A DNA stretch of 64,000 nt from Synechococcus sp. Tobar12-5m-g (GTDB lineage: Bacteria > Cyanobacteriota > Cyanobacteriia > PCC-6307 > Cyanobiaceae), in contig NZ_JAGQBB010000009.1 in NCBI RefSeq assembly GCF_024345415.1, positions 1 through 64,000 on the forward strand, written 5' to 3'. How positions within the stretch are numbered: position 1 is the stretch's first letter; the number at the start of each line of letters is the position of its first letter. Shown in pieces: positions 13,690-24,026 of this stretch. The notes under the pieces are model-generated. The model ran no database searches. It saw only the letters and a list, made by a program, of their open reading frames with translations, and was not told the origin of the DNA. The position numbers and the translations under genes were made by a program.

Positions 13690-14250
13690 ATGATCTCCAG
13701 CAACGATTTTCGTACCGGAACCACGATCGAGCTGGATGGCCAGGTCTGGCGTGTTGTGGAGTTTCTTCATGTCAAGCCAGGCAAGGGGTCGGCGTTCGTG
13801 CGGACCAAGCTCAAGGGGGTCCAGAGCGGCAGCGTTGTCGACAAAACGTTCCGCGCCGGAGAAACCGTGGCCCAGGCCGTGCTCGAGAAATCAACCCTGC
13901 AGCACACCTATATGGAGATTGAGGAGTATGTCTTCATGGACATGGCAAGTTTCGAGGAAACCCGCCTGTCGGCCAAGCAGATCGGCGAAGGTCGCAAGTA
14001 TCTCAAGGAGGGCATGGAGGTGAATGTGGTCTCCTGGAACGGCTCGCCCCTCGAAGTGGAGCTGCCCAACTCCGTCGTGCTGGAGGTCACCCAGACGGAC
14101 CCTGGGGTCAAGGGCGACACCGCCACCGGCGGCACCAAGCCGGCCATCGTGGAAACGGGTGCCCAGGTGATGGTGCCCCTGTTTATCACGATCGGCGAGA
14201 AGATCAAGATCGACACCCGCACCGACTCGTACCTGGGTAGGGAGTCCTGA
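13690..14250 (+). CDS. efp: Translation elongation factor P
   Basis: EF-P binds the ribosome E site and relieves stalling at polyproline. The 186-residue product has the KOW-like N-domain with '[18 protein letters not shown]', in which the Lys of GKG is the usually modified residue, then two OB domains ('[11 protein letters not shown]', '[19 protein letters not shown]'). I used the ATG at 13690; the open frame further upstream is antisense to the cyclophilin gene. accB follows six bases after the stop. Confidence 0.95.
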
Positions 14251-14256
14251 GGCGCC

Positions 14257-14736
14257 ATGCAGCTCGACCATGACCAGCTCCACCGGCTGCTCGCCGTTCT
14301 CGAGCAGAGCGACATCCAGGAGTTCAAGCTCGAAGGCGACGACTTCCGGTTGGAGGTGAGGCGCAACCTGCCGGTCGCCGCGCCGCCGCCGGCTCCAGCC
14401 GCTGCTGCCATCCAGGCGGTGCCAGCCCCAGCTCCAACCCCGTCCGGAGCTCCGTCCCCCTCAACGCCCCCTCCCACCGCCGCCGTCCGCGCCGATCTGG
14501 TCGACATCACGGCGCCGATGGTGGGCACCTTCTACCGGGCTGCCACCCCTGATGATCCGCCGTTCGTCGAACTCGGCAGCCGCATCGCCGTCGGCCAGCC
14601 GGTCTGCATCCTCGAGGCGATGAAACTGATGAACGAACTGGAGGCCGAGGTGAGCGGCGAAGTGGTCGAGATCCTGGTGGAGAACGGCACGCCGGTGGAG
14701 TACGGCCAGGTGCTGGTCCGGGTCAAGCCGGCCTGA
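14257..14736 (+). CDS. accB: Acetyl-CoA carboxylase biotin carboxyl carrier protein
   Basis: AccB carries the biotin of acetyl-CoA carboxylase in fatty-acid synthesis. The N-terminal helical part is followed by a Pro/Ala-rich linker (about residues 45-80) and a biotinyl domain with 'ITAPMVGTFYRA' and the biotinylation site 'ILEAMKLMNELEAEV' (the Lys of AMKLM). The 159-residue length is normal. The efp-accB pairing is common in cyanobacteria and other bacteria. Confidence 0.95.
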   Translation: MQLDHDQLHRLLAVLEQSDIQEFKLEGDDFRLEVRRNLPVAAPPPAPAAAAIQAVPAPAPTPSGAPSPSTPPPTAAVRADLVDITAPMVGTFYRAATPDDPPFVELGSRIAVGQPVCILEAMKLMNELEAEVSGEVVEILVENGTPVEYGQVLVRVKPA

Positions 14737-14751
14737 GTCGGATCCGCCGGC

Positions 14752-15768
14752 TCAACCCAGCTCCCAGGCCGTCTCCAGCGCCGCCGCCATGCTTCGGGCC
14801 CTGGCGATCCCCTGGCCGGCAATGTCGAAACCGGTGCCGTGATCCGGTGAGGTGCGCAGGAAGGGCAGCCCGAGGCTGGTGTTCACCGCTTCGTCGAAGG
14901 CCAGCAGCTTGACCGGAATCAGCCCCTGATCGTGATACAGGGCCAGGTAGCCGCTGGGTCCCTTGGCTTCGCCGCGCCAGGCCGCGGCCGCCCCCAGCCA
15001 GCAGGTGTCCGGGGGCAGGGGGCCCAGCAGCTCCACGTCGGGATGGTGGCGGCGCCAGCCCTCCAGGGTCGGGATCAGCCAGTCCTGCTCCTCCCTCCCC
15101 AGCAGACCGGTTTCACCGGCATGGGGGTTCAGCCCGGCCACCACCAGCTGGGGCCTGGTCTCAAAGCGTCGGCAGAAGCTGAGCAGCACCTCGAGTTTGC
15201 GTTCCACGAGGGCGGGACAGAGCCGCTGGGGCACCTCGCTCAGGGGGATGTGGGTGGTGGCCAGCAGGGTGTTGAGCCGCCAGTTCCCCCGCGGGGCCCT
15301 GGCGGTGAACAGCATCGAGGTTTCATGGCCGCCGCCCAGCTCCGCCAGCCGCTCCGTCTGGCCTGGATAGGGGTGGCCGGCCGCATGCCAGGCCTGTTTG
15401 GCGATCGGCGCGGTGGTGAGGGCATGGCATTGGCCGTTTCGCACGAGCTCCGTCGCCGCCGTCAGCCAGGCGAAACTGGCGGCTCCGCTGGCGGCGTTGC
15501 CCCGACCGAGTTCCAGCTCCCCATCGAGGGGCAGATCAAGGATGGGGTGGTCGGAGGGATCGGCCAGCGGCACCGGGCTCAGCTCCCGCAGGGCGGCATG
15601 GCTGCGCTCCAGCCAGTGGCGACAACCGACCAGAACCACCTCGATCCCCACCCCCTTCAGCGCGGCGAGGGCCTTGAGGCTCACCTCCGCACCGATGCCG
15701 GCGGGATCTCCCAGGCAGAGGGCGATGCGTCGCTGCCTACCCTGAAGTCTGGGGAGCGCTGGGCCCAT
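14752..15768 (-). CDS. pdxA: 4-hydroxythreonine-4-phosphate dehydrogenase PdxA
   Basis: PdxA acts in the DXP-dependent pathway to pyridoxal phosphate. Family motifs include 'IALCLGDPAGIGAEV', 'GQTERLAELGG', 'VAGLNPHAGETGLLGREE' and 'ALYHDQGLIPVKLL' (metal-binding His/Asp). 'LRTSPDHGTGFDIAGQGIA' is also characteristic. The frame is open to 15930, but the ATG at 15768 gives the expected N-terminus. That start overlaps the start of a small gene on the other strand by two bases, leaving no space for separate leaders. Confidence 0.92.
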   Translation of the reverse strand: MGPALPRLQGRQRRIALCLGDPAGIGAEVSLKALAALKGVGIEVVLVGCRHWLERSHAALRELSPVPLADPSDHPILDLPLDGELELGRGNAASGAASFAWLTAATELVRNGQCHALTTAPIAKQAWHAAGHPYPGQTERLAELGGGHETSMLFTARAPRGNWRLNTLLATTHIPLSEVPQRLCPALVERKLEVLLSFCRRFETRPQLVVAGLNPHAGETGLLGREEQDWLIPTLEGWRRHHPDVELLGPLPPDTCWLGAAAAWRGEAKGPSGYLALYHDQGLIPVKLLAFDEAVNTSLGLPFLRTSPDHGTGFDIAGQGIARARSMAAALETAWELG

Positions 15769-15946
15769 GATCCGTTGGTTGCTGATTGGTTCGATGTTGT
15801 TCGGTCTTGGCACCGGCCTGCAGCGGGGCTGGATCACCATCGACTGGTGCCGCTTCATGGCGGAAACCAAACTGCCGACCCTGAACAGCCTGCAGCCGGA
15901 CGCCACGCCGGTCTGTCCACCCCCGGCCACCGCCGTCAGCCCATGA
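15767..15946 (+). CDS. Small single-span membrane protein, 59 residues, unknown function
   Basis: An ATG-started frame encodes a hydrophobic N-terminal helix ('RWLLIGSMLFGLGTGLQRGW') followed by a short polar tail with two Cys and a Pro-rich end. From memory, similar tiny proteins with a 'W-L-L-G-x-G-T-G-L' helix occur beside this epimerase gene in Synechococcus and Prochlorococcus; I could not verify that here. The first ATG overlaps the divergent pdxA start, and the 3' end overlaps the stop of the convergent epimerase gene. The function is unknown. Confidence 0.55.
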   Translation: MIRWLLIGSMLFGLGTGLQRGWITIDWCRFMAETKLPTLNSLQPDATPVCPPPATAVSP

Positions 15947-16871
15947 TGCCTTTTCCGCTGGTGCTTTCCTCCGCCAGGCAGGCACGGTAGCCCTCGCGGA
16001 AGCTGGGGTAGCGCAGGCGGTAGCCCAGTTCCTGGCAGAGCCTGCGGTTGCTGGTCCGTCGGTTTTCGGCCCAGAAGCTTCGGGCCATCGGGCTCAGACC
16101 GGCCGCGACGTCCGCGAAACGCTCCACCGCCGGAAGCTTGCAGCCCAGAAGATGGGCGGCATGGCCCAGGCTCTCGGTTGACGGGCAGGGCCGGTCATCG
16201 GCCAGGTTCACCAGGGTCGGACGTTGGTTCGGGGCCAGCCGCAGGCAATGCAGCAGGGCGCCGACGATGTCGTCGACATGGATGCGGCTGAACATCTGGC
16301 CGGGCTTGTGGATCAGCCGGCTCCTGCCCTCCCGCAGGTTTTGGAAGGGGGACCGGCCGGGTCCGTAGATCGCCGGCAGGCGGAACACCTGCACCGGCCA
16401 GCCGGTTTGCAGCCAGAGCTGCTCGCAGGTCAGCCTGGCCTTGGAACGCGGCAGGCTGGTCTGGACAGCTGCAGACTCATCGACCCAGCCCCCGCCCCGG
16501 TCTCCGTAAACGCCGGTGGTGGAGAGATAGCCCACCCATTGGAGGGGGAGTTGGCCCAGCAGGGGGGCCAGGTTGCTCAGCACTGGATCAAGCCCCCCAG
16601 CATCGGGAGGGATCGTCACCAGAACATGGCTTGTGCCGGCAAGGGGCCCCGCCTCCGGCCGCACCCCCCGCTCGGAATCAAAGGGCAGCCAGCGGAGCCC
16701 GGTGCCCACGCCGCCCTCGGTTTGCCCGGAGCCGTGCGGGGAGGCCAGGCGATGGCTGAGGGTTACGGCCATGCCCTGGGCCAGGGCGGCCCTGGCGAAG
16801 CGAAGACCGCTGTAGCCCCCCCCCAGCACCAGCAGCTTTGGCGCCGGGGAGTTGACAAGCGCTGCCGTCAT
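15936..16871 (-). CDS. NAD(P)-dependent epimerase/dehydratase family protein (extended SDR, YeeZ-like)
   Basis: The product is a 311-residue SDR-type protein. The N-terminal nucleotide-binding motif is 'LLVLGGGYSGLRFARAA' (GxxGxxG type). A later 'YLSTTGVYGDRGGGWVDE' supplies the Ser/Tyr region, and 'VFRLPAIYGPGRSPFQNL' is typical of atypical SDRs such as YeeZ. The classical YxxxK pair is not obvious, which suggests an atypical member. Substrate unknown. It precedes pdxA on the same strand. Confidence 0.8.
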   Translation of the reverse strand: MTAALVNSPAPKLLVLGGGYSGLRFARAALAQGMAVTLSHRLASPHGSGQTEGGVGTGLRWLPFDSERGVRPEAGPLAGTSHVLVTIPPDAGGLDPVLSNLAPLLGQLPLQWVGYLSTTGVYGDRGGGWVDESAAVQTSLPRSKARLTCEQLWLQTGWPVQVFRLPAIYGPGRSPFQNLREGRSRLIHKPGQMFSRIHVDDIVGALLHCLRLAPNQRPTLVNLADDRPCPSTESLGHAAHLLGCKLPAVERFADVAAGLSPMARSFWAENRRTSNRRLCQELGYRLRYPSFREGYRACLAEESTSGKGIMG

Positions 16872-16904
16872 GGGTACACCTGTACCAGAGTCATTCCTTG
16901 ATCG

Positions 16905-17132
16905 ATGTCCGTCTCCTGTTGCTCTCCATCTCTAGGTCTGGAGCGACCGGCCGCTGCGCGGGCTGGGCGTCGGCGCCCCCAGGCTGGGCGTCGATCCAGG
17001 CTGGGGGCGCCCGCCGCTCTGGTCGTTGGCCTCCTGCTGGTGGCCGCCGCCGTGATCGCACCTGAGCGCCCAGAGGACCAGGGTGAAATCTGCCTGCGCC
17101 ACAACAGCCCAGCCGCCTGCCGGGTCTGGTGA
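16905..17132 (+). CDS. Small membrane protein with conserved-looking Cys-rich C-terminus, unknown function
   Basis: A 75-residue product with a basic N-terminus, one membrane helix ('AALVVGLLLVAAAVIAP') and a C-terminus with two Cys ('EICLRHNSPAACRVW'). From memory, small cyanobacterial proteins end in a closely similar 'C-x-x-x-N-S-x-x-A-C-x-V-W' pattern, which makes me think it is real; this was not searched. It is divergent from the epimerase gene (33 bp apart) and convergent with the HNH gene. Function unknown. Confidence 0.55.
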   Translation: MSVSCCSPSLGLERPAAARAGRRRPQAGRRSRLGAPAALVVGLLLVAAAVIAPERPEDQGEICLRHNSPAACRVW

Positions 17133-17145
17133 CCCAGGCCACGGA

Positions 17146-17559
17146 TCAGGCCGCCTGCAACATCAGGCCGCCAGGGCCCTGCGCTGTCGGGGCCGGGCTG
17201 GCGTTGATGACGTTCTCCGGCGTGGCCCATTGCAGCAGGCGCACGGCCAGCCGCAGATCCCCATCCATCCAGGCCCGAATCGCCATGGCCCGCCGGGGGT
17301 CGTAGAAACGCTGGCGCCGGTACCAATCAAAGGTGTCGGCATCACTCTTGTGGCCGTTGCAGGCCAGGCAGGCCGGCACGCAATTAGCCGTGACGCTCAG
17401 ACCGCCCCGGCAGCGGGGCATCAGGTGGTCGATGGATTCCGAGCGATCACCACAGTAAATACAACGGTGATGGGTGTATTTGTGGAGGGATTGTCGCCAA
17501 TGACGGACCCGAAGTTTGGGGCAGAGTTCTTCAAGAAAGACCGCATCTCTGGCGTGCAT
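17146..17559 (-). CDS. HNH endonuclease family protein
   Basis: This 137-residue protein is built around an HNH fold: 'CIYCGDRSESIDHLMPRCRG' supplies the first zinc Cys pair and the catalytic His in the 'SIDH' segment, then 'TANCVPACLACNGHKSD' supplies the Asn/second Cys pair and final His. Such proteins cut or nick double-stranded DNA. There is no second domain. It is divergent from the SNF2 helicase gene across a 231-bp spacer, which is of interest because ZRANB3 joins the same two activities in one protein. Confidence 0.85.
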   Translation of the reverse strand: MHARDAVFLEELCPKLRVRHWRQSLHKYTHHRCIYCGDRSESIDHLMPRCRGGLSVTANCVPACLACNGHKSDADTFDWYRRQRFYDPRRAMAIRAWMDGDLRLAVRLLQWATPENVINASPAPTAQGPGGLMLQAA

Positions 17560-17790
17560 CCTCTTGATTCAATTGAGGCCAGTTTGCCCCCAACTGCTCG
17601 GCTGTCAATGTGTCGAACACTGCTTTTTACCGGTTTGGCACAGCCAGAGCAGTGCGAGGGATCAGCCTAGATTCGACCCTTGGTGCGGTGATCCTTTCTG
17701 GCCTGCGGCTCTTCTGCTTCGGTCTACGCCAGCCTGGCCGTCGTCCGGGGCCAGGAGCCGATCTGCCGGCTTGGCCTGGGTGCCAGCGGT

Positions 17791-19380
17791 TTGATCGAGG
17801 TGATCTTCCCCTTCGATCCGGTCACCCAGGCCCAGTTGCGTGCCGTTCGTCCCCAGGGGCTCTGGCGGGCACGCCGACGCTGCTGGGAGTTCCCCCTGGA
17901 GGCGTCCCTGGCCCTGCGCAACCTGCTGGCCGGGAGGTTTTCGGTCGATCCCGAACTCGCCCAGTGGATGACCTGGCTGGAGCAACCCCTGCCTCCCTTG
18001 CCTCCCCACCGGGCCCTGGTGGCGGCTGCCCAGCTGGAGCAGCTTTTGCCGGATGGTCGCCAGCTCTTTCCCCATCAGCGGCTGGCTGCCCGCTGGTTGC
18101 TGGCCCGGCGCGGTGGGCTGCTTGCCCATGCCATGGGCCTGGGCAAGACCCTCACCGCCCTGGTGGCGGCCCGGGCGATGGTGCGCCTGGCCGCCTGCCG
18201 CGTCGCGGTGGTGGCACCGGCGGGTCTGCATGCCCATTGGCGCCAGGAGGCGATGGCGCTCGGGCTCGAGTTGGAGCTGGTCAGCTGGGGCCGTCTGCCC
18301 CGTGGTCTGCCCCCGGCCGGAACGGTGCTGATCGTGGATGAAGCCCATTACGCCCAGAACCTTTCGGCCGCCCGCACCCAGGCCCTGCTCCGTTTGGCAC
18401 GGCATCCGCGGCTGCGGACCATCTGGCTGCTCACCGGCACACCGATGAAGAACGGCCGTCCGTCCCAGCTGTTTCCGTTGCTGGTGGCGATCGGCCATCC
18501 ACTCGGCCGTGATCAGCAGGACTTCGAGCAGCGTTACTGCCAGGGCCATTGTCGCCAGGTGAACGGACAGCAGCGTTGGCAGGCCAGGGGTGCCGAGCGG
18601 CTCGATGAACTGCAGGATCTGACCCGTCCCCTGATGCTCCATCGGCGCAAACAAGATTGCCTCGATCTACCCCCGAAACGACGGGAACTCCATCCCGTGG
18701 AGCTTTCGCCCAGCCAGGGCAGGGGCTTCCAGCACCTGCTGCAGGGCAAGGTGGACGACTACCGCCGCCGGGCGATTCGGGGGGAAGTCCGCCCCGGTGC
18801 CGAGGCCCTGGCGATGCTGACGGCCCTGCGCCAGATCGGAGCCCAGTACAAGTTGCCCACCGCTGTGGAGCTGGTGGGAGGGTTGCTCCAGAAGCGCCGG
18901 GCCGTGGTGGTGTTCACCGCCTTCGTGGCCGCCGCGGAACGGATGCACGAACGCCTGGGGGGGGGCCTGCTCACAGGCCGATTGAAGTCGGCCGAACGGC
19001 AAGGACAGGTGAACCGGTTTCAGGATGGGCAGACCCCGCTGCTGATCGCCACCTTCGGCACGGGGGGGCTGGGGTTCAACCTGAACCGCGCCGCCCATGT
19101 GGTGCTGCTGGAGCGCCCCTGGACTCCGGGCGATGCCGAACAGGCGGAGGATCGCTGCCATCGGATCGGCATGGGCGGGCCCCTGACGAGTCACTGGTTG
19201 CAGCTTGGGGTGGCCGACCAGCTGGTCGACGGCTTGATCGCCAGCAAGGCCGAGCGTGTCGCCCTCTTGCTGGAGGGCCGACGGACCACCCTTCAACGGG
19301 ACTCCCTGCCCGCGATGGTGCAGGGCCTGATCGATCGCTGGTCGTCGGAGCCTTCGCCGGGGGCGGAGGGGACTCAGTAG
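17791..19380 (+). CDS. SNF2-family helicase with HARP-like N-terminus (SMARCAL1/ZRANB3-like)
   Basis: A 529-residue SNF2 ATPase. Motif I is 'AMGLGKTLTAL', motif II 'VDEAHY', motif III 'LTGTPMKNG'; the C-terminal lobe has 'GLGFNLNRAAHVVLLERPW' and motif VI 'QAEDRCHRIGM'. The first 45 residues ('EVIFPFDPVTQAQLRAV ... RRCWEFPLEA') resemble the HARP motif of SMARCAL1, an annealing helicase that rewinds DNA. The start is a TTG at 17791; the frame stays open to 17692 without a better start. No nuclease domain is fused. The 3' end overlaps the convergent secreted-protein gene by seven bases. Confidence 0.8.
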   Translation: MIEVIFPFDPVTQAQLRAVRPQGLWRARRRCWEFPLEASLALRNLLAGRFSVDPELAQWMTWLEQPLPPLPPHRALVAAAQLEQLLPDGRQLFPHQRLAARWLLARRGGLLAHAMGLGKTLTALVAARAMVRLAACRVAVVAPAGLHAHWRQEAMALGLELELVSWGRLPRGLPPAGTVLIVDEAHYAQNLSAARTQALLRLARHPRLRTIWLLTGTPMKNGRPSQLFPLLVAIGHPLGRDQQDFEQRYCQGHCRQVNGQQRWQARGAERLDELQDLTRPLMLHRRKQDCLDLPPKRRELHPVELSPSQGRGFQHLLQGKVDDYRRRAIRGEVRPGAEALAMLTALRQIGAQYKLPTAVELVGGLLQKRRAVVVFTAFVAAAERMHERLGGGLLTGRLKSAERQGQVNRFQDGQTPLLIATFGTGGLGFNLNRAAHVVLLERPWTPGDAEQAEDRCHRIGMGGPLTSHWLQLGVADQLVDGLIASKAERVALLLEGRRTTLQRDSLPAMVQGLIDRWSSEPSPGAEGTQ

Positions 19381-19841
19381 TTGTAGCGATCGCTACGGGT
19401 GGTCCCCCCGCTCTGGATCGGAACGGGTCCCGAGCTGGACGTCGGTGCCAGAGGGGGCTTTTCAGAGCCGTAAAGCGCTCCCAGATAGCGGCCGCAATCG
19501 GGATAGGCACTTGGGTTGCGGACCACGGCCTCGGTGATCATCACGGCAGCGTGCTCCGGTGAAGTTTTGAAAAGGCTGTCGCTCTGCCGCTTGATCAAGG
19601 CATAGGCGGCGGACCAGCTCACCTCATGGTTGTTGCCCGATGTCCGCATGAAGCAGTACACCTGCGCTCCTTTGTCGGACACGCTGGCCATCGTTGGCTG
19701 GGGGGTGGTCTGACTGAGCAGGGGCAGGGGCAGGGCAAGGGCGACCAGGGCGGGCGCCAGGGTCGCGCCGAGGCGAAGCAGCGGCTGGAGGGAGAGGGGG
19801 CGACGGGGGTGCATGGAGATGTCGGGTGAACCAGCGGCCAT
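19374..19841 (-). CDS. Secreted protein, unknown function (DUF6554-like)
   Basis: The 155-residue product has a signal peptide ('LAPALVALALPLPLLSQ'), then a small domain with 'GAQVYCFMRTSGNNHEVSWS', 'YALIKRQSDSLFKTSPEHAA' and a second Cys in 'YPDCGRYLG', and a low-complexity tail. The two Cys could form a disulfide in the periplasm or lumen. I recall this pattern as a cyanobacterial domain of unknown function (probably DUF6554), but this is from memory. An alternative ATG at 19814 would shorten the N-terminus. Confidence 0.7.
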   Translation of the reverse strand: MAAGSPDISMHPRRPLSLQPLLRLGATLAPALVALALPLPLLSQTTPQPTMASVSDKGAQVYCFMRTSGNNHEVSWSAAYALIKRQSDSLFKTSPEHAAVMITEAVVRNPSAYPDCGRYLGALYGSEKPPLAPTSSSGPVPIQSGGTTRSDRYNY

Positions 19842-19893
19842 GGCCCCAACGTATCGGTCGCTTTGAGGCTGTCGAGGTCAAGGCCGGTGGGAC

Positions 19894-20415
19894 TCAGCTC
19901 GAGGCATGACCACCTGTTGCCGAGACCACCAGGCGAACGGTGAGCGGCAGGACCAGCAGGACGGTGATCAACCGCACCGCATGGAGGGCGGCCACGGCGG
20001 CCCCAACCCCGAACTCGGCGCCGACCAGGCTCATGCCGCTGATGCCGCCCGGTGCCGCCCCCAGCAGCATGATCACCGGATCGACTCCCAGCCAGCGACT
20101 GCACAAGAGCCCGACCACCAGGCCCGTGGCCACCAGGGTCAGGGTGATCACGATGGCGGGCCGCCAGAGTTGGCGCAGTTCCAGCAACGCCGAGTTGGTC
20201 AAGGCGGTGCCGATCACCGTGCCGATGGCGATCTCTAGCAGCGTGCGGGTGCCCGAGGGCCACTGGGCGGCTTCGAGTCGGCCGCTCATGCTGATCAGGC
20301 CCGCCCCCAGCAGGGCACCGGCCAGGGGTGCGGCGGGGATCCCCGTGCGCAGAGCCAGCAGCCCCCCGACCAGGCCCCCCAGCAGGTAGATCCCCAAACC
20401 GACTGTTGACGTCAT
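19894..20415 (-). CDS. AbrB-family membrane protein (single-repeat form)
   Basis: The 173-residue product is almost wholly hydrophobic with about five to six helices. It has the Gly-rich motif 'MLLGAAPGGISGMSLVGAEF', typical of the AbrB/AmoA-like transporter family (not the AbrB DNA-binding regulator). Usual family members have two such repeats in about 350 residues; this one has a single repeat and may dimerise. I chose the ATG at 20415; the frame runs upstream to 20514 with a polar extension that overlaps the next gene on the other strand. Substrate unknown. Confidence 0.75.
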   Translation of the reverse strand: MTSTVGLGIYLLGGLVGGLLALRTGIPAAPLAGALLGAGLISMSGRLEAAQWPSGTRTLLEIAIGTVIGTALTNSALLELRQLWRPAIVITLTLVATGLVVGLLCSRWLGVDPVIMLLGAAPGGISGMSLVGAEFGVGAAVAALHAVRLITVLLVLPLTVRLVVSATGGHASS

Positions 20416-20507
20416 GGCCAGAGGCGCCAGGTGGATCCAGCCAGTTTGGGAGAAGGCTTGAGTCTGCGGTCGATCTGTGCTGTCATCAGCCTTACCGCTC
20501 CGCTGAG

Positions 20508-20795
20508 ATGGCACCTGAATCGGTTTCCTTCCGGATTACGCGCACGGCCGAAGACCTCGCCCAAACGGTCACGGCCCTCTCCCATCGGTTGGTTCGAATG
20601 GAACAGCGACTGGGGGCGCTGGAGACAGCCATCGAGCAACGCCAGTCACCGGAGCCGGCCGAACTCGAAGCCCTGGCCCACGTGGAGGTGCTGCTTCGCG
20701 ATTGCCGTCTGCTCCTCGAGGAGCCTTCGTTGCCAGGAGCCTCTGAATTCCTGGAGCCCCAGGCCATCAGGGAAGACTTCCCCAACGCGGCCTGA
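20508..20795 (+). CDS. Small helical protein, unknown function
   Basis: A 95-residue acidic protein, mostly alpha-helical, with a probable coiled coil ('LSHRLVRMEQRLGALETAIE') followed by 'LEALAHVEVLLRDCRLLLEE'. No family recognised. The ATG at 20508 fits because upstream sequence in this frame is antisense to the AbrB-family gene. It is the first of three small genes in a row on this strand. Confidence 0.6.
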   Translation: MAPESVSFRITRTAEDLAQTVTALSHRLVRMEQRLGALETAIEQRQSPEPAELEALAHVEVLLRDCRLLLEEPSLPGASEFLEPQAIREDFPNAA

Positions 20796-20851
20796 CCTTG
20801 CTGTGTCGCATCGCACCCGAGAGGGATGACAGAATAAAAAGAAATGCAACC

Positions 20852-21082
20852 ATGGCGAACACTTATCCCGCCTGCCCTCTGCCCCGTCCGATCGGCGCCG
20901 AAGGTTACGTGTTGAGTTCCGTGCGCAAGGTCACGTCCGGCTTCATCGAGGGTGGTCACCAGCTCGAAAAACTTGAATTCGCCCTTGCCGTCGCCGTGGC
21001 CAGGGGCGATCGTATCAAGGTTGATCAGCTCCGCTCCCAGATTTCCGCCCTCGGCGGTGAGGGTGAAGAGCCTGGCACCTGA
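20852..21082 (+). CDS. Small conserved-looking protein, unknown function
   Basis: A 76-residue protein. The N-terminus 'PLPRPIGAEGYVLSSVRKVT' is followed by an amphipathic helix pair ('HQLEKLEFALAVAVARGDRI', 'VDQLRSQISALGG'). The ATG at 20852 has an A-rich leader (AATAAAAAG about 15 bases upstream). The pattern L-E-x-A-x-A-x-A-x-GD also appears in the next small gene, so the two may be distant relatives. Function unknown. Confidence 0.6.
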   Translation: MANTYPACPLPRPIGAEGYVLSSVRKVTSGFIEGGHQLEKLEFALAVAVARGDRIKVDQLRSQISALGGEGEEPGT

Positions 21083-21132
21083 ATCGGCCCAGAGGTAAAC
21101 TCTCACTGGCTGAATAGCTTTTGTGAATCTTC

Positions 21133-21372
21133 GTGGTGGTTTCCATTCAATTTCAAGCCAAGCCAAGTCTGCAACACACCAACTCCCTGCAGAAAGATCA
21201 GCGAGCTTTTCTACTGCTTCAGCTCAGCCGCCTGGAGTCGGAGTCTGCCGCTGCTGCGGCGATCGGGGATCTGGTTCAGGCCGCCCGGGCCATTCTCAAG
21301 GCCTTGGATTGTGAGCGTCGCTTGAGTACCACTGGTCCCCAGGTGCTGCAACTGATCAAGCCCCGTTCCTGA
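21133..21372 (+). CDS. Small helical protein, unknown function
   Basis: A 79-residue product, probably from a GTG (21133 or 21136). It is helical, with 'LLLQLSRLESESAAAAAIGD' and 'AARAILKALDCERRL'. It follows the preceding small gene by 50 bases. I do not recognise a family. The absence of an ATG and the short length keep confidence moderate. Confidence 0.45.
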   Translation: MVVSIQFQAKPSLQHTNSLQKDQRAFLLLQLSRLESESAAAAAIGDLVQAARAILKALDCERRLSTTGPQVLQLIKPRS

Positions 21373-21432
21373 TCAAGCGGACCAGGTGATTACTGTTTCT
21401 TGATCGCGACGTCCTGATCACGATGATGCCTC

Positions 21433-21491
21433 ATTCAGAATCGCTCCGGGCCCTAAGCCCTCTGTAGGAATTCAGAATCAGGAATTCAGAA
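21433..21491. repeat. Three copies of ATTCAGAA next to tRNA-Gly
   Basis: ATTCAGAA occurs at 21433-21440, 21470-21477 and 21484-21491; the last two lie within AGGAATTCAGAA repeats 2 bases apart. The repeats fill the spacer between a small gene and the tRNA. No function can be assigned. Confidence 0.5.
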
Positions 21492-21517
21492 AAACCGTGG
21501 CCTTGATTCGTGCTACA

Positions 21518-21589
21518 AGCGGGTGACCGGACTCGAACCGGCGACGTTCAGCTTGGGAAGCTGACATTCTACCACTGAATTACACCCGC
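21518..21589 (-). tRNA. tRNA-Gly (anticodon CCC)
   Basis: A 72-base cloverleaf on the minus strand. The acceptor stem is GCGGGTG pairing with CACCCGC, with discriminator T. The anticodon stem TCAGC/GCTGA encloses the loop TTCCCAA, giving anticodon CCC for GGG codons. The T arm is GCCGG-TTCGAGT-CCGGT-like. No CCA is encoded, as is usual in cyanobacteria. It lies alone between small genes and the aminotransferase gene. Confidence 0.93.
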
Positions 21590-21627
21590 GCCAGCACAAA
21601 CTAGCAAACAATCTGCCCGGGGGCTGG

Positions 21628-22782
21628 TCAGCCGCGGGCCAGTTCGGCGCCGGCTGCAGCCACCCCGGCGCCGACGACTCCCTTCGAGAGGCCGAGGGCC
21701 TGCAGGGTGGCCTCGATCGCCGCCACGGCGGTGAGGACATCACGGTCGCAGACGAAACCGAGGTGACCGATGCGAAAGACCTTGCCCTTCAGGTGATCCT
21801 GGCCTCCAGCCAGAAGGATGTCGAAACGCTCCTTGACGGCTTTGCGCAGCACTTCCGCGTCGATCCCCTCCGGCGCCACCGCCGTGATCGACGGGCTTCC
21901 GTGGCCTTCGGCGGCATAGAGCGCCAGGCCGATCGCTTTCATGCCCGCCTGGGCGGCGCGACGGTGGCGGGCGTGGCGCGCGAAGATCGACTCCAGCCCT
22001 TCCTTCTGCATCATCTCCAGCGCCGCCTCCAGGGCGAAGTACAGATTCACCGGAGGGGTGAAGGGGTTGCTGTCCTTGGCGGCCGCTTTCCGGTAGGTGG
22101 CCAGATTCAGATAGAACTTCGGCAGGTCGGAGCGCTCCTGGGCCTGCCAGGCCCGCTTGCTCATCGCCACGAAACTGAGACCCGGCGGCATCATGTAACC
22201 CTTCTGGGAGCCGGACCCCACCACATCGAGGCCCCAGTCGTCCATCGGCACGTCGCAGGCGCCGAGGCTGGTGACGCAATCGGCCACGATCAGGGCCTGG
22301 CCATGGGCGTGGACATGGCGAGCGATGGTCTCCAGGTCGTTGATCACCCCCGTGGAGGTCTCCGAATGGGTGAGGATCACAGCTCGAATGCGCTTGTCGG
22401 TGTCAGCTTCGAGGCTGGCGCGGAACGCTTCAGGATCCAGGGGTTGGCCCCATTCCGCCTGGATCACCTCCACGTCGAGTCCGTAGGCCCTGGCCACCTT
22501 CACCCAGCGCTCGCCGAATTTGCCGTTGTCTCCGCAGAGCACCTTGTCTCCATGGCTGAGAACGTTGATGATTCCGGCCTCCATCGCGGCGGTGCCGCTG
22601 CCGGTGAGCACCAGCACGTCAGCTTCGGTCTGATGCAGCCACTGGAGCTGGGCGGTGGTGCGCTTGACGATCGCCTGAAACTCGGCGCTGCGGTGGCCGA
22701 TCGGATGGCGGCTCATCGCCAGCAGGACGGTCTCCGGTACCGGGGTCGGACCGGGGATCATCAGGGTCAGCTTGTCCTGCAT
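21628..22782 (-). CDS. Class V aminotransferase (alanine/serine--glyoxylate aminotransferase type)
   Basis: This PLP enzyme probably transfers an amino group from alanine or serine to glyoxylate, which fits photorespiration. The N-terminus 'MIPGPTPVPETVLLAMSRHP' is typical of the family. 'LTGSGTAAMEAG' binds phosphate, 'VADCVTSLGACDV' holds the PLP-ring Asp, and 'VGSGSQKGYMMPPGLSF' holds the Schiff-base Lys. The ATG at 22782 gives 384 residues; the frame upstream is a basic low-complexity extension. Substrate preference cannot be read from sequence. Confidence 0.9.
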   Translation of the reverse strand: MQDKLTLMIPGPTPVPETVLLAMSRHPIGHRSAEFQAIVKRTTAQLQWLHQTEADVLVLTGSGTAAMEAGIINVLSHGDKVLCGDNGKFGERWVKVARAYGLDVEVIQAEWGQPLDPEAFRASLEADTDKRIRAVILTHSETSTGVINDLETIARHVHAHGQALIVADCVTSLGACDVPMDDWGLDVVGSGSQKGYMMPPGLSFVAMSKRAWQAQERSDLPKFYLNLATYRKAAAKDSNPFTPPVNLYFALEAALEMMQKEGLESIFARHARHRRAAQAGMKAIGLALYAAEGHGSPSITAVAPEGIDAEVLRKAVKERFDILLAGGQDHLKGKVFRIGHLGFVCDRDVLTAVAAIEATLQALGLSKGVVGAGVAAAGAELARG

Positions 22783-22868
22783 GGAGGGGGGGCGGAGGGT
22801 GGAGGCGCGGCGGCGCGATCGCCCAGCATAAAAAAGGGGCCACAGCCCCACCTTGGAGCGGTGCCGAG

Positions 22869-24026
22869 ATGACCACCTCCACAGCATTCACCCTGCCGGT
22901 CTGGGTGGTGGCGGCGGCGCGCGCGGCGGTGGTGGCGCTGGTTCAGGGAGCCGAGGAGTCGATTCAACCCACCGATCCAGCACCGCTGCTGGAGCTGCTG
23001 GATCCACCCGGCCGACAACCCGTGCCGGTGGAAGCAGCCGCCCGCCTCGGCGCCACCGAGGCCCTGGGGGTCAGTCGCTGCCAGCCCGGCGAGGGGCTGG
23101 ATCTCACCCGTGACCTGGCGGTCTGGGTGCTGGCAAGCCGGTGGCAACCCGGTTCAGAACCGCCACCCGACGCTGACGGAGCCTGGCTGCGGCTCGAGGC
23201 AGGCGAGGGGGTGGGAATCCATGCCACCAGCGCCGACCTCTGCCACTCCAGCTACGCCCGCGAGCTGCTCGAAACCAACCTTCGCCCCCTCTGGCCCAAT
23301 GGCCAGGGGCTGCGTTTGCGGATCATCTTTCCCCAGGGCCGGCGCCTGGCCGAGCGCACCAGCAACGCCGCCTTTGGGGTGGTGGATGGCCTGGCCCTGA
23401 TCGGCACCCAGGCCATCGTGCAGCGCAGCGCAGCGCCCGACCAGCTGGAGGCCTGCCTGGAGGATCTCCGTCACAGGGCCGCCCAAGCCGATTTCGGCGG
23501 CAATCTGGTGGTGGTGATCGGCGAGAACGGTCTGGATCTGGCCCCCCAGCTGGGGCTGCCGGCGGAGCTGTTGCTCAAGGCCGGCAACTGGCTGGGCCCG
23601 GTACTGGTGGCGGCCGCCGAGGCAGGGGTTCAACGCCTGATCCTGTTCGGCTATCACGGCAAATTGATCAAGCTGGCCGGCGGCATCTTTCATACCCACC
23701 ACCATCTGGCCGATGGCAGGGCGGAGGTGCTCACCACCCTCGCGGCCCTGGAGGGCCTCACCGGTGAACCGCTCGAGCGGCTGCATGGGGCCTCCACGGT
23801 GGAGGCGGCCCTGGCCGCTTTGGCCGTCCACGATCCCGTCCTGGCGGCGCGGGTGGAGCAGCGCCTGGCGGACACGATCGAGAGCCGCAGCCTGGCCTAC
23901 CTGGCCCGCTACGGGTCGTGGCCGCTGAGGATCGGCGCCGTGCTGTTCGATCGTGCCCGCCGCTTGCGCGCCTGCGGGGCTGAGGGGCGGGCGCTGCTCC
24001 AGGCTTTCCGGCACCCTTTAGGGTGA
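22869..24026 (+). CDS. cbiD: Cobalt-precorrin-5B C1-methyltransferase CbiD
   Basis: CbiD methylates C1 of the corrin ring in the cobalt-early (anaerobic) route to pseudocobalamin. Family landmarks are the N-terminal '[14 protein letters not shown]', '[17 protein letters not shown]' and '[20 protein letters not shown]', with a His-rich '[10 protein letters not shown]' segment. The 385-residue length is normal. A second corrin gene (cobH/cbiC type) lies about 33 kb away. guaA follows 31 bases after the stop. Confidence 0.9.

What the first reader, a model, noticed from the sequence alone, without database searches (positions are those of the whole stretch)
17146..19380. HARP-like SNF2 helicase beside a stand-alone HNH nuclease: a split ZRANB3-like pair?
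The helicase begins with 'VIFPFDP ... WEFPLEA', like the HARP motif of SMARCAL1, followed by a compact SNF2 motor. The adjacent divergent gene is a bare HNH nuclease. In eukaryotic ZRANB3 an annealing SNF2 helicase and an HNH nuclease sit in one chain and act at stalled forks. Two separate bacterial proteins with the same activities could be a fork-repair module or a defence system. The link here is adjacency only.
Basis: partly seen in the sequence, partly recalled or inferred. Interest (0 to 1): 0.6.

Follow-up and report, generated by a model that had tools for sequence, protein, structure and literature searches.

The report
Phage-type HARP–SNF2 motor in cyanobacteria
A small DNA motor protein in this cyanobacterium carries a short front domain that looks distantly related to the one that lets a human repair enzyme zip DNA strands back together; its nearest relatives are on phages and plasmids, and the nuclease gene beside it looks like a separate, more widely kept gene rather than half of a split enzyme.

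Summary
Both genes are real and divergent, 231 bp apart. The helicase (17791-19380 +) is a compact SNF2 motor whose N-terminus is HARP-like only through its phage/plasmid relatives. Pfam HARP does not match the window protein, and a family-only profile fails. Profiles with close phage/plasmid relatives rank the SMARCAL1 entry 4O66 first among PDB sequences (E 0.0012, 7e-5, 4e-4; 0.0037 with the best row left out); family and phage/plasmid N-termini match by hhalign (about 97%). Several relatives lie in replication modules (DnaB, DnaD-like loader). The 'split ZRANB3' idea is not supported. HNH is adjacent in 118 of 118 helicase-bearing genomes of 200, but within a conserved block whose neighbouring joints are equally kept. 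HNH persists without the helicase in 76 of 194 genomes, mostly with the same promoter element, and lacks the ZRANB3 insert. No HNH was detected beside the metagenomic viral relatives; some isolated phages do have one nearby. Best reading: ancient chromosomal capture of a phage/plasmid HARP-SNF2 translocase, probably strand-annealing or branch-migrating (inferred), beside a separately conserved nuclease. The HARP link makes the unknown role of phage SNF2 enzymes testable.

The parts
17791..19380 (+). Compact SNF2 translocase gene with HARP-like start (529 aa, TTG start)
   Evidence: (PHROG_62 E 4e-72)
17791..17946 (+). N-terminal HARP-like domain (residues 1-52), predicted strand-helix-strand-strand-helix
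   Evidence: (negative)
18133..18150 (+). Walker A motif MGLGKT (residues 115-120)
   Evidence: M115 to K119 invariant in 17 aligned sequences
18337..18348 (+). Walker B motif DEAH (residues 183-186)
   Evidence: invariant in 17 aligned sequences
17146..17559 (-). Zinc-type HNH endonuclease gene (137 aa), constant neighbour, judged a separate conserved gene
17347..17463 (-). HNH core (residues 33-71): C33, C36, D44-H45, N59, C64, C67-N68, K71 invariant in 26 aligned sequences
17603..17608 (-). TTGACA, likely -35 box of the HNH promoter (possible -10 CAAACT at 17581-17586, read by eye)
   Evidence: TTGAC at 49-51 nt before the HNH start in 87 of 98 unique upstreams
17560..17790 (.). Intergenic region between the divergent genes; no LexA-like palindrome by the (recalled) pattern used
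   Evidence: 0 of 82 unique intergenic sequences
13690..24026 (.). Conserved block efp-accB-pdxA-epimerase-like-HNH-helicase-small ORF-AbrB-like-two small ORFs-aminotransferase-cbiD (gene names are my own reading of the sequences, not from a call)
   Evidence: order kept in the larger loci read

Best explanation
The 17791-19380 protein is a minimal HARP-SNF2 DNA translocase of a phage/plasmid lineage. It sat on the chromosome before the sampled lineages of this family split, and was lost again in the streamlined small-genome genera. Likely mechanism (inferred): the HARP-like domain binds single/double-strand junctions, and the SNF2 motor runs on double-stranded DNA and rewinds strands. It would thus anneal bubbles, branch-migrate junctions or regress stalled forks, as SMARCAL1 does. 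The divergent HNH gene encodes a separately conserved zinc-type HNH nuclease with its own promoter element; no cooperation with the motor is shown. Shown here: sequence homologies, synteny, phyletic pattern. Inferred: all biochemical activities.
For: HARP: 4O66 (a SMARCAL1-type chain of 76 aa; that it is the HARP domain is recalled) is the best of 177,635 PDB sequences for four overlapping profiles: A3, family+plasmid+viral, E 0.0012, next 0.68; A5, ten plasmid/viral N-termini, 7.2e-5, next 0.6; A9, 17 plasmid/phage rows, 4.3e-4, next 0.4; A10, A5 without L289, 0.0037, next 0.12. The family N-terminus matches A5 (prob 96.9) and A9 (97.5) by hhalign. Pfam HARP appears below its cut-off just before the motor in 5 of 17 relatives scanned, all five viral (E 0.014-0.067; 3 of 8, 2 of 9). 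Lineage: PHROG_62 E 4e-72; plasmid homologs at 39-44%; ten closest viral loci at 32-41%. Setting: DnaD-like loader plus DnaB after the helicase in L288 and L289, Erf in L291; dnaB about 2.8 kb away on the Nostoc 7524 plasmid. Ancestry: both genes on both sides of the root of an rpoB tree of 28 family genomes, with moderate support at the root forks (95/78 and 81/82). HNH independence: 194 of 200 genomes have it, 118 have the helicase.
Against: The family-only N-terminal profile (A4) does not find 4O66, and Pfam HARP does not match the window protein at E<=10. All Pfam HARP matches in relatives are below the curated cut-off, and neither plasmid protein scanned has one. N-terminal rows were picked by eye. 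More distant relatives (18 viral and 12 genome rows prepared) show a different N-terminus and were left out, so the HARP-like start is not general to such helicases. Foldseek and VIA searches with the N-terminal model (pLDDT 76) did not list 4O66 (inconclusive). No biochemical data were found for any member. Against separateness of the HNH: none of the 118 helicase-bearing genomes lacks the HNH, and G191 and five g21 genomes lack both, which a dependent pair would also give.
Confidence: 0.57

Rival explanations
1. Split ZRANB3-like module: helicase and HNH act together at stalled forks, the motor positioning the nuclease.
For: HNH divergently adjacent in 118 of 118 helicase-bearing genomes; none of these lacks HNH; both absent in G191 and five g21 genomes; HARP-like start on the helicase; annotated stand-alone HNHs 0.6-2.7 kb upstream of related helicases in Arthrobacter phages Laroye, Kovu and Ottawa and Rhodococcus phage ReqiDocB7, four of six regions read, the ReqiDocB7 one being similar to the window HNH (E 2.5e-7).
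Against: Flanking unrelated genes are equally conserved (8 of 8 larger helicase-bearing loci keep both the epimerase-HNH and the helicase-small ORF joints). 76 genomes keep HNH without helicase. HNH lacks the ZRANB3 insert (PMC5481773, passages). HNH-like ORFs in 0 of 169 viral loci and 2 of 80 genome loci, both of this family (other HNH types could be missed). The HNHs of Laroye, Kovu and Ottawa gave no match to the window HNH, and HNHs are common in phages (recalled).
Confidence: 0.17
2. The motor is an ordinary bacterial SNF2 ATPase (RapA-like or other protein-DNA remodeller) and the HARP resemblance has no functional meaning.
For: Closest solved motors by sequence and fold are generic remodellers (DDM1, Chd1, CSB); Pfam HARP is below threshold in all 17 relatives scanned; the family-only profile is negative.
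Against: 4O66 ranks first in four overlapping profiles, 30- to 8000-fold ahead of the next row; same position next to the motor in phages, plasmids and chromosome; replication-module context in some.
Confidence: 0.21
3. The pair is an anti-phage or restriction-like defence system.
For: PADLOC models match: helicase to ZorD (E 5e-24), DpdE (8e-23), DrmD (9e-19); HNH to PDC-M01B (2.5e-7) and PtuB (2.7e-4). Restriction-type operons with SWI2/SNF2 helicases often also encode HNH nucleases (PMC2292703, passage).
Against: The matches cover the shared SNF2 motor or HNH core only, and the NCBIfam scores of such proteins are far below cut-off. The locus is a fixed housekeeping block, not a variable island. 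HNH is in 194 of 200 genomes of the order.
Confidence: 0.05

Closest known systems
PHROG_62 phage 'DNA helicase' family (SNF2 type) and plasmid relatives in Synechococcus PCC 7502, Nostoc and Microcystis
   Same: Same SNF2 motor along 41-461 (E 4e-72); plasmid copies 39-44% identical, four of them aligned over the HARP-like start.
   Different: These four plasmid copies are 671-801 aa with an extra N-terminal region; the three viral contigs typed sit by replication or recombination genes, this one in a chromosomal housekeeping block.
SMARCAL1/HARP annealing helicase
   Same: HARP-like domain directly before an SNF2 motor; SMARCAL1 is an annealing helicase (PMC4035279, passages).
   Different: The family N-terminus alone does not score as HARP; one copy here, two in vertebrates; an RPA-type partner was not looked for.
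ZRANB3/AH2
   Same: An SNF2 motor and an HNH nuclease in one locus.
   Different: Two genes, one often without the other; HNH lacks the helical insert (PMC5481773, passages); no chain named ZRANB3 among the 29 PDB sequences matched by the HNH profile (that the library holds it was not checked).
Geobacter HNH nickase 4H9D and the HNH of Cas9/IscB
   Same: Solved relatives of the HNH core: 4H9D E 4.9e-9, unnamed HNH-domain proteins 2e-7, Csn1/Cas9 4.6e-6, IscB 0.0043.
   Different: This HNH has family-specific flanking segments and stands alone.

Membership tests
Pfam HARP (PF07443) | Score above curated cut-off (25 bits) | tested here: not met
   No match for window protein at E<=10; relatives 13.2-15.4 bits in 5 of 17
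HARP-domain superfamily (wider sense) | Detectable profile homology to a solved HARP domain | tested here: inconclusive
   Met for plasmid/viral N-termini and for the mixed profile; not met by family sequences alone, which reach it only through hhalign to those relatives
HARP-domain superfamily (wider sense) | HARP three-dimensional fold | tested here: inconclusive
   Model shows strand-helix-strand-strand-helix; 4O66 not listed by Foldseek or VIA
SMARCAL1-like annealing helicase | ATP-dependent strand annealing / branch migration | not testable with these tools
   needs purified protein
SNF2 ATPase | SNF2-related and Helicase_C domains with intact Walker A and DEAH | tested here: met
PHROG_62 phage DNA helicase | Profile match over the motor | tested here: met
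   E 4.4e-72, residues 41-461
ZRANB3 HNH | Helical insert in the HNH domain | tested here: not met
   Only 7 residues between C36 and D44; ZRANB3 deletions 972-1010/975-1013 lie just before D1020/H1021 (PMC12841045, passages; position of the insert inferred from numbering)
ZRANB3 | Motor and HNH in one chain | tested here: not met
   Separate genes; HNH without helicase in 76 of 194 genomes
Zinc-type HNH nuclease (PF01844) | CxxC...DH...N...CxxCN catalytic/zinc pattern | tested here: met
   Pfam over cut-off; residues invariant in 26 aligned sequences
Known defence systems (PADLOC, NCBIfam) | Match along most of a system protein, above cut-off where one exists | tested here: not met
   Partial matches over the motor or HNH core; NCBIfam ZorD 51.7 bits against a cut-off of 1500

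The most novel reading that the evidence does not exclude
Some phages and plasmids carry HARP-SNF2 translocases in their replication modules that act as strand-annealing or fork-remodelling enzymes. They are the prokaryotic source from which eukaryotic SMARCAL1/ZRANB3-type annealing helicases arose, and the cyanobacterial copy is a domesticated version serving chromosomal forks.
Probability: 0.28. Interest if true: 0.8.

Novelty: new variant of a known kind. Interest (0 to 1): 0.5.

Why it matters
[quoted passage not shown] In the eukaryotic system, fusing HARP domains to other SNF2 proteins is reported to give them annealing activity (PMC4035279, passage citing an earlier paper). A HARP-like domain in phage, plasmid and cyanobacterial SNF2 proteins therefore gives a direct, simple test of their activity and a possible prokaryotic origin for eukaryotic annealing helicases. 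It also weakens a tempting 'split ZRANB3' story.

Tried and rejected
Split ZRANB3 pair: rejected as main reading, because adjacency is no tighter than that of unrelated block neighbours (8 of 8 larger loci), HNH survives helicase loss with a promoter element of its own, and it has no ZRANB3 insert. Defence: PADLOC matches cover only shared cores. SOS control: no LexA-like palindrome in 82 intergenic sequences (consensus recalled). Pfam HARP on the window's genome: none. Family-only HARP profile: best was an unrelated protein, E 0.049. Fold search of the N-terminal model: nothing convincing; 4O66 was not among the rows. Single-protein viral scans with L289 and L288 gave 1 and 10 loci, mostly the same or near-identical sequences. 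The first HNH scan used a profile dominated by this family, so it was repeated with phage HNHs and a looser pattern; other HNH types could still be missed, and the 169 viral loci include repeat fetches of the same contigs and loci cut at contig ends.

Rows dropped. A5 holds the N-termini of six of the ten closest viral loci (L285-L287 match at the same query positions with near-identical scores to L284; L290 has no alignable start) and of four of five plasmid copies (L165 is interrupted by a transposase gene). A9 leaves out L292 and L164 of A5 and adds two further viral loci, L372 and named-phage rows with an alignable start; L454 as scanned begins at the motor. Distant rows without a HARP-like start (18 viral, 12 genome) were not put into any N-terminal profile. 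Of 288 phage records matching L289, 30 were listed and six were read.

Limits. Eukaryotic SNF2 motors were not available, so descent of SMARCAL1/ZRANB3 from phage proteins was not tested by a tree. I found no print of HARP-like domains in phage SNF2 proteins in searches, of which listings were seen (43, 62 and 112 were capped: 15 of 17, 10 of 46, 10 of 85); PMC5512222, PMC9069017 and PMC7824862 have no occurrence of HARP or SMARCAL1 in the held main text. Subscription papers are not covered.

Full report
Observation. The window holds a 137-aa HNH ORF (17146-17559, minus) and a 529-aa SNF2 ORF (17791-19380, plus, TTG start), divergent, 231 bp apart. Pfam gives HNH E 1.6e-6 for the first and SNF2-rel_dom 7e-26 plus Helicase_C 2e-13 for the second. 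The helicase's best PHROG is phrog_62 'DNA helicase' (E 4.4e-72 over residues 41-461). Walker A and DEAH are kept in the 17 aligned sequences. The AlphaFold2 model (26 rows, pLDDT 86) shows a strand-helix-strand-strand-helix unit in residues 1-46 ahead of the motor, and the model matches SNF2 remodellers in the PDB.

Is the N-terminus HARP? Directly, no. Pfam HARP does not match the window protein or its genome at E<=10, and a profile of 11 family N-termini alone does not find 4O66, a 76-aa SMARCAL1-type chain that I recall to be its HARP domain. Through relatives, yes. The same region precedes the motor in cyanobacterial plasmid proteins and in the closest viral and some phage proteins. Against 177,635 PDB sequences, a profile of 21 N-termini (family, plasmid, viral) gives 4O66 first at E 0.0012, next 0.68. 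Ten plasmid/viral N-termini alone give 7.2e-5, next 0.6. Without L289, the row that finds 4O66 by itself at 0.044, they give 0.0037, next 0.12. Seventeen plasmid/phage rows from sixteen proteins give 4.3e-4, next 0.4. These profiles overlap and are not independent, and rows were picked by eye among relatives with an alignable start. The family profile matches the plasmid/phage ones by hhalign (96.9% and 97.5%). Pfam HARP turns up below its cut-off just before the motor in 5 of 17 relatives scanned, all viral (3 of 8, 2 of 9). More distant relatives (18 viral and 12 genome rows) have a different N-terminus, so the domain is a feature of a subset. An N-terminal-only model did not retrieve 4O66 by fold, which is inconclusive. 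Arthrobacter phage Ottawa seems to carry two HARP-like units in tandem, as vertebrate SMARCAL1 does (PMC4035279, passages).

Where it comes from. Of 255 class members outside the family, one (G371) has an ortholog-level helicase (E 1e-119; the rest are at 1e-22 or weaker). Its contig has the same length, 63,272 bases, as plasmid pSYN7502.01 of Synechococcus PCC 7502. Other close relatives are on Nostoc and Microcystis plasmids. The ten closest viral loci are at 32-41% identity. Two of those typed are followed by a DnaD-like loader and DnaB (L288, L289), and a third has Erf 2.5 kb upstream (L291); the Nostoc 7524 plasmid has dnaB about 2.8 kb away. So the protein belongs to a lineage found in replication modules of mobile elements.

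Linkage with the HNH. In 200 genomes of the order, 118 have a helicase ortholog (E<=1e-160, parsed) and 194 have an HNH ortholog (E<=1e-45). The HNH lies divergently next to the helicase in 95 genomes by listed place and in 22 of the 23 remaining loci. The last, G181, is split by a contig end, with the first 29 HNH residues in the right place. That makes 118 of 118. However, the whole block efp-accB-pdxA-epimerase-like gene-HNH-helicase-small ORF-AbrB-like-aminotransferase-cbiD is conserved. In the 8 larger helicase-bearing loci the HNH-epimerase and helicase-small ORF joints are kept in 8 of 8, so adjacency carries no special signal. Seventy-six genomes have HNH without helicase: genera g2, g3, g4, g7 and g13 (about 1.5-2.0 Mb) plus G140 of g10. 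In the 8 loci without helicase that contain the block, HNH stays between the same neighbours. Six genomes lack both: G191, with the rest of the block intact, and five of g21, whose block is rearranged. An rpoB tree of 28 family genomes and two outgroups has both genes on both sides of the root, so the pair is probably ancestral and the helicase was lost later. Root forks have moderate support (95/78 and 81/82), and the place of g21 is unsure because of its long branch. None of the 118 has the helicase without the HNH, a hint but not proof of dependence, since a single deletion removes both; outside the family G371 has the helicase and no HNH ortholog.

The HNH itself. It is a zinc-type HNH with catalytic and zinc residues invariant in 26 aligned sequences, plus conserved flanking segments and an invariant C-terminal alanine. 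No ortholog was found in the 255 class genomes outside the family (best E 6e-13). Cyanophage HNHs are related at about 37% over 73% of the length. Its nearest solved relative is the Geobacter nickase 4H9D (4.9e-9), followed by unnamed HNH-domain proteins, Cas9 and IscB; no chain named ZRANB3 was listed. ZRANB3's HNH has a helical insert needed for its nuclease activity (PMC5481773, passages), absent here. A TTGAC element 49-51 nt before the HNH start is present in 87 of 98 unique upstream sequences, and in 13 of the 16 from loci without the helicase, which supports independent expression.

HNH beside relatives of the helicase elsewhere. HNH-like ORFs were found in 0 of 169 viral loci (some are repeat fetches or cut short) and in 2 of 80 genome loci, both of this family; a third family locus, L205, ends before the HNH. 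Of six isolated-phage regions read, four (Laroye, Kovu, Ottawa, ReqiDocB7) have an annotated HNH 0.6-2.7 kb upstream of the helicase and two do not. The ReqiDocB7 HNH is similar to the window HNH (E 2.5e-7), the other three gave no match to it. HNH genes are common in phages (recalled), no base rate was measured, and I give this modest weight in favour of a pair.

Mechanism. HARP domains fused to other SNF2 motors are reported to confer annealing-helicase activity (PMC4035279, passage citing Ghosal 2011). I infer that this protein binds DNA junctions through residues 1-52 and rewinds or branch-migrates DNA with its motor. Nothing biochemical was tested. SNF2 enzymes of viruses and prokaryotes are stated to have unknown function (PMC9069017, abstract passage). 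Transfer of SWI2/SNF2 ATPases from mobile elements to eukaryotes on several occasions has been proposed (PMC5512222, passage), and PMC5481773 mentions 'bacterial ZRANB3-like proteins' (legend), so prokaryotic relatives as such are not new. A HARP-like domain in phage/plasmid SNF2 proteins was not found in the searches made (listings only).

Verdict. Observation confirmed; HARP intuition supported in a wider sense, by way of relatives; split ZRANB3 pair and defence not supported. Interest 0.5 for the HARP-SNF2 link, not for the pair.

Noticed in passing
L204 (contig CALPNT020000066.1): A contig with this HNH-helicase locus (69% identical helicase) is filed in a MAG named Bifidobacterium breve, so that MAG is contaminated or misnamed.
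   Followed up: no
L142 (G122) and second copies in at least 11 g2 genomes listed: Small genomes carry a second, diverged copy of the HNH (57-64% to the window) at another locus, a few with stop codons in the match.
   Followed up: partly
L457:3752-5650: Arthrobacter phage Ottawa helicase appears to have two HARP-like units in tandem, as in vertebrate SMARCAL1.
   Followed up: partly
L161:7599-9611, L162:8942-11134, L163:6891-9191, L164:6789-9191: Plasmid helicases carry an extra N-terminal region with a conserved 'DGxGFNxxDxxxGHxLA'-like motif, also seen in viral L288, L291 and L293; the window protein lacks it.
   Followed up: no
window 17603-17608: Strongly conserved TTGAC promoter-like element at a fixed distance from the HNH start (87 of 98 unique upstreams).
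   Followed up: yes
G000:C7:63062-63223: A second, distant HNH ORF (40% over the core) in the window's own genome; weak HNH matches of this kind occur in most class members.
   Followed up: no
L136:5438-6692 (G140): The helicase slot of G140 holds 1.25 kb without a detected helicase remnant but with a 132-aa open frame.
   Followed up: partly
L454:1100-8542 (Rhodococcus phage ReqiDocB7): A phage region where an HNH similar to the window's, an SNF2 helicase and an annotated DnaN clamp gene lie within 8 kb.
   Followed up: no
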